Assembly (NCBI GenBank): GCA_028571685.1
Contig: CM053141.1
Span: 54,124,333 to 54,188,332, forward strand
DNA from: Heterohyrax brucei
Lineage: Eukaryota; Chordata; Mammalia; Hyracoidea; Procaviidae
Reading direction: 5' to 3'
DNA length: 64,000 nt
Part shown: positions 20,708 through 35,019 of the stretch, in pieces
How the letters are laid out: every line of letters starts with the position of its first letter
Position numbering within the stretch: position 1 is the first letter of the stretch
Notes under the pieces: generated by a model
The model's input: only the letters and a program-made list of their open reading frames with translations
Told to the model about the DNA's origin: nothing
The model's database searches: none
Program-made: the position numbers and the translations under genes

Positions 20708-20719
20708 CTAGTAACACCA

Positions 20720-20752
20720 TGAGTCGGATCTGACTCGGTGGCACTTGGCTGG
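20720..20752 (+). mobile_element. Ultra-short (33 bp) tail-only SINE/RTE insertion
   Basis: The insert is tgagtcggatctgactcggt followed by ggcacttggctgg: only the terminal hairpin of the SINE/RTE 3' end and a short tail. It lies between two perfect copies of ctagtaacacca (20708-20719, 20753-20764), a 12-bp target site duplication. This marks it as a retrotransposition event of minimal size rather than a decayed SINE. Confidence 0.85.
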
Positions 20753-20764
20753 CTAGTAACACCA

Positions 20765-21396: not shown

Positions 21397-21406
21397 AAAC
21401 ATGCCC

Positions 21407-21444
21407 CAAGAGTCGGATCCGACTCGACGGCACTTGGCTTGGCC
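21407..21444 (+). mobile_element. Ultra-short (38 bp) tail-only SINE/RTE insertion
   Basis: Insert caagagtcggatccgactcg then acggcacttggcttggcc. The core gagtcggatccgactc is a perfect 16-bp palindrome. Perfect 10-bp flanks aaacatgccc occur at 21397-21406 and 21445-21454. The core is nearly identical to the insert at 20720, so both derive from one source type. Confidence 0.85.
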
Positions 21445-21454
21445 AAACATGCCC

Positions 21455-22121: not shown

Positions 22122-22276
22122 AATGGTGGGGCAGTTAAGAGTTCTAACATCAGCCAAAAGGCTGGCAGTTCAAATCCACCAGCTGCTCCTGGAAATCTCT
22201 ACAGGGTAGTTCTACTCCATCCTACAGGGTCATTACGAGTCAGAACTGACTCAGTGCAAATGGGTTTGGTTTTATT
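22122..22276 (+). mobile_element. AfroSINE copy
   Basis: aatggtggggcagttaagag, ccaaaaggctggcagttcaa (B box), ttctactccatcctacaggg, cattacgagtcagaactgac and a tgggtttggtttta tail. Confidence 0.85.
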
Positions 22277-24310: not shown

Positions 24311-26034
24311 ATTATACATCCACATTACAGAGCATTAGTAGACCCACAGTTTACAGCTGATGTAGTTAAGGGGAAGAAATAGCAATTCATTTGACCAATG
24401 TAATAAGCTGGTATAGGAATTCCAGGCTCAAAAGTCTGGTTCTCAAATCTATGATCATAACTAAAATTCTTCCATTTATTGTGAAGTTTTAAAGAGCTTT
24501 GTAAATTCAATTACTACATAAAAATGAGAAAACAAAGAACTTGCAAATTTTAGTCTACTGCCAAGCCAAGTACTGTCATTTAGTCTACTAGGAAAACATA
24601 AACCCATCTATCAAAAAGCAAAAAACAGAGGAATTTGGATTCACTTGGATGCCTAAGTTGTTAATTACTCCAGATGTCAATGGGAGACTGAGGTGGGAAG
24701 AGTTTCAGTTTTGAATGAAACACTGCTTTAGTTATTTTCCCACAATCTAAAAAGTGCTGCAACTTTAGAAACACTTCTAAAAATTATGGAGAATTCAAAG
24801 TGTACTCAAGTGTTATCTTTTTATTATAAATAATTATCCATTTAAAAGTTTTGTTGTAAATTATATTATCTCATGTTGTTCATGCCAATATCAAAATATA
24901 TTTTGTGTGTTTTAAGTCAGAAACACATTTTATGTATCTGTTCAGTCCTTTGCTGATTCTGCTCAATGAGCTCAAAGTGACTAGGGTAATTGAAATTTAA
25001 GAAGATAAATTTAGATTGTTTAGAATGGCTTATCTAGTAAAAATGTATGGTTTAAACACTGTAGGAATATAAAATACTTTATATTTGTATGATGTTTATA
25101 CTTTACACAGCATTTCGCATACATTCTTATCTATAGCTTCAAAATTCCGGCCAAAGAAATGTGTTAATTTTAAAATTTCCTCCTCTCAAACTGTTATCAA
25201 CCACAAACCAGCTTTCCTGAGATGAGATCCTTGTTATCTCATAGTATTCAGCAGCTGATTCTTTGAGGTTTGGATTACAGCTTCAAAAAGACCTCCTATG
25301 TCACTGATACAACTAGAGATGATAAAACCCTGTGTTCAATGCTGTATTTGTAGTAATTTAATTTAATAGCTTCTATTCATCATTCCGTTTCTCAGAACGT
25401 GCCAAATCCTCTTTCCAACATATATTAGGCTATGTGGAGAATGCAGAAGGTGAGATGAGATAAAACATATGCTAGGCTGTCACCAGATTGGACCACCACC
25501 AACCAAGCAGTCAAATAGCACCTGAATGTTTACAGAGATCATCATTAGCTGTGAAGTAATCTTGCATGATAAATTATTCCTTTTGGGACCTCTGGAAACA
25601 CATACCCCTGCTATTGTGAACAAGGCACCTGCTTTGGCAATATAAGGGAATGCCAAATTGAACAACGAATGAGAAGGAACAGGAAGCTCTTGATAGAAAA
25701 CAGAGCTAGAATAATAAGCCTTTTATACTTTGAAAAATAAGCTTTCAACCTTTGCTTCTTTCTCTTCCTGCACAGTCATTTTAGAATCAATTCTTTAGCC
25801 ACATTTTGATTTAAGATGATTGGGGATGGTTGCTTTTTCTGTTATTGCGATTATGATTGAGCTTGTGGCTGTTTTCGCTGTTCTAAATTCAGAAAAATAA
25901 GTGTAACTTCTTTTTTTCCCTTTAACCTTGACAACCAGCTTTGAGTAATTTGGTAAAGCAGAAAGTTCTTACGGAATGACGGCTGGTCTCACTAGTTTGT
26001 TGCTAAAAATATGTGAGAATACATATATATCCAA
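24311..26034. other. Repeat-poor intergenic DNA
   Basis: Apart from the 19-bp insertion at 24560 I recognise nothing over 1.7 kb. It could hold conserved non-coding sequence, but this cannot be told from one genome. Confidence 0.5.
24560..24578 (-). mobile_element. Ultra-short (19 bp) tail-only insertion
   Basis: The insert reads tgacagtacttggcttggc on the minus strand, 16 of 19 identical to the end of the insert at 21407 (cgacggcacttggcttggc). Perfect 11-bp direct repeats tttagtctact flank it (24549-24559, 24579-24589). No hairpin remains, only the tail. Confidence 0.75.
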
Positions 26035-26047
26035 GTATACATACACA

Positions 26048-26207
26048 AGAAACCGTGGTGGCATGGTGGTTAACTGCCATGTCTGCTAACCACATTTGAC
26101 AGTTCGAGTGTGCCAGGCACTCCTTTGAAACTCTGTGGAGCAGTTCTACTCTGACCTACAGGGGCTATGAGTCAGAATTAACTCAAGGTCAGTGGGTTTG
26201 TGTTTTG
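26048..26207 (+). mobile_element. AfroSINE, first of a tandem pair
   Basis: gaaaccgtggtggcatggtg, gtctgctaaccacatttgac, ttctactctgacctacaggg, gctatgagtcagaattaact and a gggtttgtgttttgg tail. Flanked by gtatacatacaca (26035) and gtatatacaaacac (26208). Confidence 0.9.
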
Positions 26208-33952: not shown

Positions 33953-35019
33953 TGTTGTTAGGTGCTCTTGAGTTGGTTCCAACTCATAGCGATCCTATGA
34001 AAAACAGAACGAAACACTGCCCAGTCTTGCGCCATGCCCACTATCGTTTTTTATGCTTAAACCCATCGTTGTGGTTACTGTGTCAATCCATCTTGTCTAG
34101 GGTCTACCTCTTTTACGCTGACCCTCCACTCCGCCATGCATGATGTCCTCCCCCAGAGACTGATCCTTCCTGACAACATGTCCAAAGTATGTAAGATGCA
34201 GTCTTGACATCTTTGCTTCTAAGGAGTGCTCTGGTTGTACTTCTTCACGAACAGATCTGTTTGTTCTTTTGGCAGTCCATGGTACATTCAACATTCTTCT
34301 CCAACACTACAATTCAAAGGCATCAATTCTTCTGTTTTCTTTGTTCACTGTCCAGCTTTTGCATGCGTATGAGGACACTGAGAATACCGTGGGTTGGGTC
34401 AGGTGCTCTTTAGTCTTCAAGGTGACGTCTTTAGTTCTGAATAGTTTAAAGAGATCTTTTGCCACAGATTTTCCCACTGTAATGCATCTTTTGATTTCTT
34501 GACTGCTGCTTCCATGGGTACTGATTGTGGACCCAAGTAAAATAAAATCTTTGACAACCTTAATCCTTTTCTCGATTTATGACAATGTTGCTTAGGGGCC
34601 CAGTTGTCCAGATTTTTGATTTCATGATGTTGAAGTACAACTCATACTGAAAGCTGTGATCTTTAATCTTCATCAGTGTTTCAAGTCTTCTTCACTTTCA
34701 GCAAGCAAGGTGATGTCATCTGTGTAACTCAAGTTGTTAACGAGTCATCCTCTAATCCTGATGCCTCGTTCTTCTTAGAATACATCTTCTCAGATTATTT
34801 GCTTGGCATACAGATTGAAGAGGTAAGGTGAAAGAATACAACCCTGATGCACACCTTTCCTGACTTTAAACCATGCAGTGTTCCCTTGTTCTGTTTGCAC
34901 GATTGCCTCCTGATCCACATACAGATTCCCTAAGAGCACAATTAGGTGTTCTGGAATTCCCATTCTCCACAATGTTAGCCATAATTTAGTATGATCTACA
35001 CAGTCAAATGCCTTTGCCT
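33953..35019 (-). mobile_element. RTE/BovB-class LINE, 3' third
   Basis: Minus strand, about 1.07 kb, 5'-truncated, one of the better preserved copies. The plus strand starts with tgttgttaggtgctcttgag and ttggttccaactcatagcga (tail and hairpin). The 60-codon minus frame at 34790-34972 still reads GVHQGCILSPYLFNLYAKQ, the RT motif around the conserved QG and LSP. The 65-codon minus frame at 34097-34294 is the C-terminal segment. It ends at about 35019 in the RT core. Confidence 0.9.

What the first reader, a model, noticed from the sequence alone, without database searches (positions are those of the whole stretch)
21397..21454. Second ultra-short insertion with the same core and its own target duplication
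38 bp (21407-21444) with the perfect 16-bp palindrome gagtcggatccgactc and tail cggcacttggcttggcc, flanked by perfect 10-bp repeats aaacatgccc. It lies within 700 bp of the first, at an unrelated target. Two independent inserts of the same minimal unit argue for a recurrent process rather than decay.
Basis: partly seen in the sequence, partly recalled or inferred. Interest (0 to 1): 0.8.

Follow-up and report, generated by a model that had tools for sequence, protein, structure and literature searches.

The report
Stub of a mostly truncated SINE
This 38-base insert is the tail end of a longer jumping element whose copying usually stops within a few dozen bases, so this mammal-like genome holds very many such stubs; it is a real insertion but not a separate minimal unit.

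Summary
In detail: a 38-bp insert (21407-21444) lies between perfect 10-bp repeats, and a 33-bp relative lies 0.7 kb away. Core plus tail (up to 3 mismatches) occurs 33,101 times in the 3.49-Gb genome, 0 in the reversed control. Longer copies show that the insert is the 3' end of an AfroSINE-like SINE sharing its hairpin with an RTE-like LINE. In 65 independent exact-tail copies the 5' ends fall everywhere: 34 of 65 start inside or 3' of the hairpin, 4 of 65 reach 76 nt, stop rate about 4.6% per nucleotide. An older SINE tail type is mostly long (15 of 18), the LINE tail almost always (19 of 20). Target duplications, an A/T box upstream, 5' microhomology and paralogous empty sites support target-primed reverse transcription ended early; 83 of 148 copies show no clear duplication. 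Unusual: a SINE subfamily seen mostly as 20-90-bp stubs. Orthologous empty sites were not testable.

The parts
21397..21406 (+). left target-site duplication AAACATGCCC
   Evidence: read directly
21407..21444 (+). 38-bp insert: 5'-truncated 3' end of the SINE subfamily (match to the parent is clear from 21410; the first 3 bases may be filler or divergence)
   Evidence: family count
21410..21425 (+). 16-bp palindrome, predicted RNA hairpin; related stem in the older SINE tail and the LINE tail
   Evidence: fold (the fold of this tail is not better than its shuffles, z -1.39)
21426..21442 (+). 17-nt 3' tail GACGGCACTTGGCTTGG
21445..21454 (+). right target-site duplication AAACATGCCC
   Evidence: read directly
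20708..20719 (+). left target-site duplication of the neighbouring insert, CTAGTAACACCA
20720..20752 (+). 33-bp neighbouring insert of the same subfamily
20753..20764 (+). right target-site duplication of the neighbouring insert
22237..22252 (+). hairpin of an older AfroSINE-like copy with SINE body upstream (contrast)
   Evidence: body read by eye
26169..26184 (+). hairpin of an older AfroSINE-like copy with SINE body upstream (contrast)
   Evidence: body read by eye
33970..33985 (-). related hairpin at the 3' end of an RTE-like LINE copy (CAA-type tail), the likely kind of partner

Best explanation
The insert is the last 35-38 nucleotides of an AfroSINE-like SINE, inserted by the endonuclease and reverse transcriptase of an RTE-clade LINE. 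The enzyme nicks the target 10-14 nt downstream of an A/T box, anneals the (CTTGG)-type RNA tail to CT at the nick, and copies the RNA from its 3' end. In this subfamily copying ends very early, at a roughly constant 4-5% per nucleotide, probably because the growing cDNA pairs by 1-5 nt of microhomology with the exposed upper target strand and is joined there. The result is a 20-90-bp stub with a duplication of about 11 bp, or with a short one or none. Shown: the longer SINE parent, the truncation profile, duplications, microhomology, the A/T box, empty paralogous sites. Inferred: the RTE partner and the cause of early stopping.
For: Copies extend stepwise into one SINE body. Hazard 0.046 per nt (95% 0.035-0.059) over 65 independent copies, with overlapping intervals in all six stretches from 0 to 76 nt. 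Duplications: 65 of 148 copies score 6 or more against 13.4 expected, 23 of 148 score 10 or more against 0; in 32 well-bounded cases the insert length has median 39 bp and the duplication median 11 bp. A/T box: 21 of 210 bases are G/C at -14 to -10 in 42 copies (p about 6e-18 against an assumed 36% G/C; the box was picked after seeing the table). Microhomology of 2 nt or more in 14 of 32 copies against 4.7% by swapping. Single target copy without insert for L047/L108, L064/L122, L072/L103, L129/L012 and others. A T stretch about 10 nt upstream of the duplication is a published RTE signature (PMC13295347: abstract, introduction, passages). AfroSINEs are listed with RTE1 as partner (PMC3747384, table passage).
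Against: 83 of 148 copies have no repeat scoring 6 or more. The partner LINE of this subfamily was not found: the LINE tail seen ends CACCTAACAACAACAA, not CACTTGGCTTGG, and the search for a LINE with this tail did not complete. That the LINE is RTE-clade rests on recall and on the published pair, not on a tree. Older SINE tails and the LINE tail are long in the same genome, so a subfamily-specific cause is needed. In the 100 copies chosen for an exact hairpin the stop rate just 5' of it is somewhat higher (0.075-0.098 per nt from 16 to 28 nt), so a modest pause there is possible. The hairpin fold of this tail is not better than shuffles (25 of 200 fold as well).
Confidence: 0.8

Rival explanations
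1. A distinct ultra-short mobile unit (hairpin plus tail) with its own small RNA that is copied as a whole.
For: Core plus tail is abundant; among 100 exact-core copies the commonest starts are 3 and 4 nt 5' of the hairpin (12 and 9 of 100).
Against: 34 of 65 independent exact-tail copies start inside or 3' of the hairpin, the rest at scattered points up to the SINE body; no sharp 5' end. Microhomology at the 5' junction points to interrupted copying.
Confidence: 0.07
2. The templates are 3' fragments of SINE RNA (decay or cleavage products) rather than full RNA copied incompletely.
For: Would give short inserts with a fixed 3' end and scattered 5' ends; the weak bump 5' of the hairpin could be a cleavage site.
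Against: Older SINE copies in the same genome are mostly long (15 of 18 independent); 5' microhomology (14 of 32 with 2 nt or more) is reported for 5'-truncated LINE inserts (PMC4245944, passages). Not excluded.
Confidence: 0.15
3. Stubs are decayed or deleted remnants of once full-length SINEs.
For: Old repeats do lose pieces; 83 of 148 copies show no clear duplication.
Against: Where duplications are clear they sit at the stub ends (32 copies), paralogous empty sites hold one copy of the duplicated target, and the older tail type, with more time to decay, is the longer one.
Confidence: 0.03

Closest known systems
AfroSINE family with its RTE1 LINE partner (Afrotheria). Table passage of PMC3747384; Nikaido 2003 and Gilbert 2008 seen only as references there, Gilbert also in one sentence of PMC13295347
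   Same: SINE body, 3' hairpin region shared with the LINE, target duplications
   Different: This subfamily ends CACTTGGCTTGG and is nearly always cut to 20-90 bp; the older tail type in the same genome is mostly long. Whether Gilbert 2008 already reports such truncation I could not read
3' partial RTE copies of Lepidoptera (Tay et al. 2010, PMC2887409; abstract and passages)
   Same: Severe 5' truncation of RTE inserts, only the 3' end between 6-12-bp duplications
   Different: Those are LINE ends still holding part of the reverse transcriptase coding sequence; here a SINE, often below 45 bp
5'-truncated LINE inserts joined by annealing (PMC4245944; abstract text and passages)
   Same: Microhomology at the 5' junction of truncated inserts, target duplications
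   Different: L1, L2-type and Nimb LINEs in cell culture; here genomic copies of a SINE, and much shorter
Tailless retropseudogenes (PMC5322556; abstract text and passages)
   Same: Short retrocopies of small RNAs with target duplications
   Different: Those lack the 3' end and are L1-driven; these keep the 3' end and lack the 5' part

Membership tests
AfroSINE-type SINE | SINE body upstream of the shared tail | tested here: met
The focal 38-bp copy itself lacks the body
AfroSINE-type SINE | tRNA-derived head with pol III boxes | tested here: inconclusive
   A box-B-like motif stands at the same place (-85) in 5 of 7 long young copies and at -73 in one more; a box-A-like motif with it in 2 of 7; in older copies 6 of 20 and 4 of 20. 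ARAGORN finds 0 tRNA genes in 8 loci
AfroSINE-type SINE | 3' region shared with an RTE LINE | tested here: met
   Hairpin and the GGGTCGC stretch before it are shared with the LINE tail; the last nucleotides differ. RTE identity of the LINE recalled, not tested by a tree
AfroSINE-type SINE | Host is an afrotherian mammal | tested here: inconclusive
   Species not named; 3.49 Gb. The p53-domain search gave 10 matches: exon sets at three places and one broken frame, unlike the 19 retrogene copies of African elephant (PMC5061548, passages)
RTE-driven target-primed insertion | Target-site duplications | tested here: met
   23 of 148 score 10 or more against 0 in the swap null; none scoring 6 or more in 83 of 148
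RTE-driven target-primed insertion | T-rich stretch about 10 nt upstream of the duplication | tested here: met
   A/T box at -14 to -10 in 42 copies, T commonest at -13, -12 and -10; A/T rather than pure T, and picked after seeing the table
RTE-driven target-primed insertion | An RTE LINE with the same 3' terminus | tested here: inconclusive
   LINE tails seen end CACCTAACAACAACAA; search for a LINE with a CACTTGG tail not answered
   5' ends continuous, 34 of 65 inside or 3' of the palindrome

The most novel reading that the evidence does not exclude
One SINE subfamily switched from mostly long to almost purely abortive insertion, with a constant chance per nucleotide of being captured by the target. 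If the same rate holds within the last 17 nt, about half of its insertions would be shorter than any repeat finder can see: hidden micro-insertions of a few to 16 bp with target duplications, by the tens of thousands.
Probability: 0.3. Interest if true: 0.65.

Novelty: new variant of a known kind. Interest (0 to 1): 0.42.

Why it matters
SINE copies are usually taken to be mostly full length (general knowledge). Here one subfamily left tens of thousands of tail copies, in the sample mostly stubs of 20-90 bp, and their lengths act as a natural record of how far the enzyme copied before the cDNA was joined. That makes the step which limits insert length in RTE-type retrotransposition measurable from sequence alone, and it warns that micro-insertions with short flanking repeats in such genomes can be retrotransposition products.

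Tried and rejected
Palindrome as start signal: rejected, 5' ends fall inside it. Hairpin as a strong stop: not supported in the exact-tail set, a weak bump in the exact-core set. Stubs as a property of all elements with this hairpin here: rejected, older SINE tail and LINE tail are long. Rfam on 15000-60000 at gathering thresholds: 0 matches. tRNA gene scan: 0 in the window, 0 in 8 SINE loci. Clustering: 99 loci around exact-core copies hold 5 neighbouring cases with at most 2 mismatches, so two inserts within 0.7 kb is not remarkable. Elephant as host: the p53-domain count does not fit. Paralogous empty copy of the focal site: 0 matches. Literature: nine searches were answered (one search was rejected for its wording), and I saw no description of such a stub subfamily in their listings or in the passages read of six papers; most subscription papers are not held, Gilbert 2008 among those not read.

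Full report
What is there. The sequence at 21397-21454 is as described: AAACATGCCC, 38 bp, AAACATGCCC, with a perfect 16-bp palindrome at 21410-21425. The neighbour at 20720-20752 is 33 bp between copies of CTAGTAACACCA. The palindrome with up to 3 mismatches has 8 matches in the window against 0.04 expected in shuffles; besides the two inserts, several of these belong to older SINE and LINE copies.

A large family. The palindrome alone with up to 2 mismatches has 79,867 sites against 910 for the reversed control. Core plus tail (33 nt, up to 3 mismatches) has 33,101 matches against 0. A 60-nt pattern with 32 nt more of the upstream body has 3,996 against 0 (stricter per base, so the ratio is only a guide). 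The 17-nt tail alone, exact, has 22,575 against 0.

The parent. I took the first 100 listed exact 33-nt copies, all on contig C1, and read upstream of the palindrome. Copies share a common upstream sequence for very different lengths. The longest run into a SINE body, as do many of the 20 loci picked for the 60-nt pattern. A box-B-like motif stands at the same place in 5 of 7 long young copies, with a box-A-like motif in 2 of 7; ARAGORN finds no tRNA gene in 8 loci. So the insert is the 3' end of a SINE that looks tRNA-derived. Its hairpin region occurs also in older SINE copies and at the 3' end of RTE-like LINE copies in the same sequence, as in the published AfroSINE and RTE1 pair (PMC3747384, table passage). 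The names AfroSINE and RTE for these copies come from recall of the sequences and that table.

No minimal unit. The exact-core set hides copies cut inside the palindrome, so I used the exact 17-nt tail instead: the first 72 listed hits on C1, 60 newly fetched and 12 already held. After removing 7 segmental duplicates, 65 remain. 5' ends are spread from directly at the tail outward; 34 of 65 start inside or 3' of the palindrome, 12 of 65 reach 33 nt, 4 of 65 reach 76 nt (one of these set by hand because of an internal deletion). The stop rate is 0.046 per nt (95% 0.035-0.059), and the intervals of six stretches from 0 to 76 nt overlap. In the 100 exact-core copies the rate just 5' of the hairpin is somewhat higher, 0.075-0.098 per nt. 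The folded tail is not more stable than its shuffles (z -1.39; the LINE tail has z -3.86).

Contrast within the genome. The older tail GACGGCAGTGGGTTTGG has 2,411 exact copies, control 1. Of 20 fetched, 17 reach at least 106 nt of body; counting L185-L187 once, 15 of 18, and L199/L200 may be a further duplicate pair. Against 4 of 65 reaching 76 nt the Fisher p is 2e-10. The LINE tail has 788 exact copies, control 0; of 20 fetched, 19 align to a LINE reference from 103 nt or further upstream (the reference is one of the 20), and 1 does not and looks like a SINE. So stubs are a mark of this subfamily, not of every element with this hairpin.

How it inserts. Of 148 copies tested, 65 have a flanking repeat scoring 6 or more (13.4 expected from swapped flanks), 23 score 10 or more (0 expected; 22 without the segmental copy L124) and 83 score below 6. 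In 32 well-bounded cases the insert length has median 39 bp (range 22-88) and the duplication median 11 bp; this set is enriched for exact cores and was required to score 8 or more. In 42 copies only 21 of 210 bases are G/C at -14 to -10 before the duplication, and C then T are favoured just before and at its start, which matches the CTTGG tail. The published RTE signature is a T stretch about 10 nt upstream of the duplication (PMC13295347). Microhomology of 2 nt or more at the 5' junction is seen in 14 of 32 copies against 4.7% by swapping, as reported for truncated LINE inserts joined by annealing (PMC4245944, passages). Of 159 joined-flank queries, 40 had a spanning hit elsewhere in the held sequence. 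In 13 of the 40 the best hit was the same locus or a segmental copy with the insert; of the other 27 some are loose alignments, but several are empty paralogues with one target copy, such as L047/L108, L064/L122, L072/L103 and L129/L012.

Most likely mechanism. RTE-type target-primed reverse transcription of the SINE RNA, ended early by pairing of the new cDNA with the upper target strand. The insertion steps rest on the data above. The partner enzyme and the reason for early ending are inferred; low processivity, early annealing and RNA fragments all predict a similar length profile. Extrapolating a constant rate into the last 17 nt predicts that about half of the insertions are too short to recognise; this is a prediction, not a result.

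Limits. No related genome was available for orthologous sites. The joined focal flanks have no match elsewhere. The copies examined in detail come from contigs C1 and C2 only, the truncation profile from C1 alone. The search for a LINE bearing the young tail did not complete.

Noticed in passing
genome contig C1, about 21.6-23.0 Mb: LINE-tail and older SINE-tail hits recur, several at steps of 197-199 kb, others at 128-386 kb, as in a large segmental duplication.
   Followed up: no
L158-L160, L168-L171, L173-L174, L007/L124: Single stub insertions carried in several segmental copies of their surroundings.
   Followed up: partly
L167: The 5' junction holds a perfect 22-bp inverted repeat of the target flank; read by eye, it includes an inverted piece of the element, as after a snap-back or 5' inversion during insertion.
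   Followed up: partly
window 24561-24577, - strand: A third, weaker match to the young tail (2 mismatches).
   Followed up: no
window 20765 onward: The neighbouring 33-bp insert lies directly 5' of what reads like the head of an older AfroSINE copy (read by eye).
   Followed up: no
window about 60.4-60.5 kb: CCCT tandem array that dominates chance direct repeats in the window.
   Followed up: no
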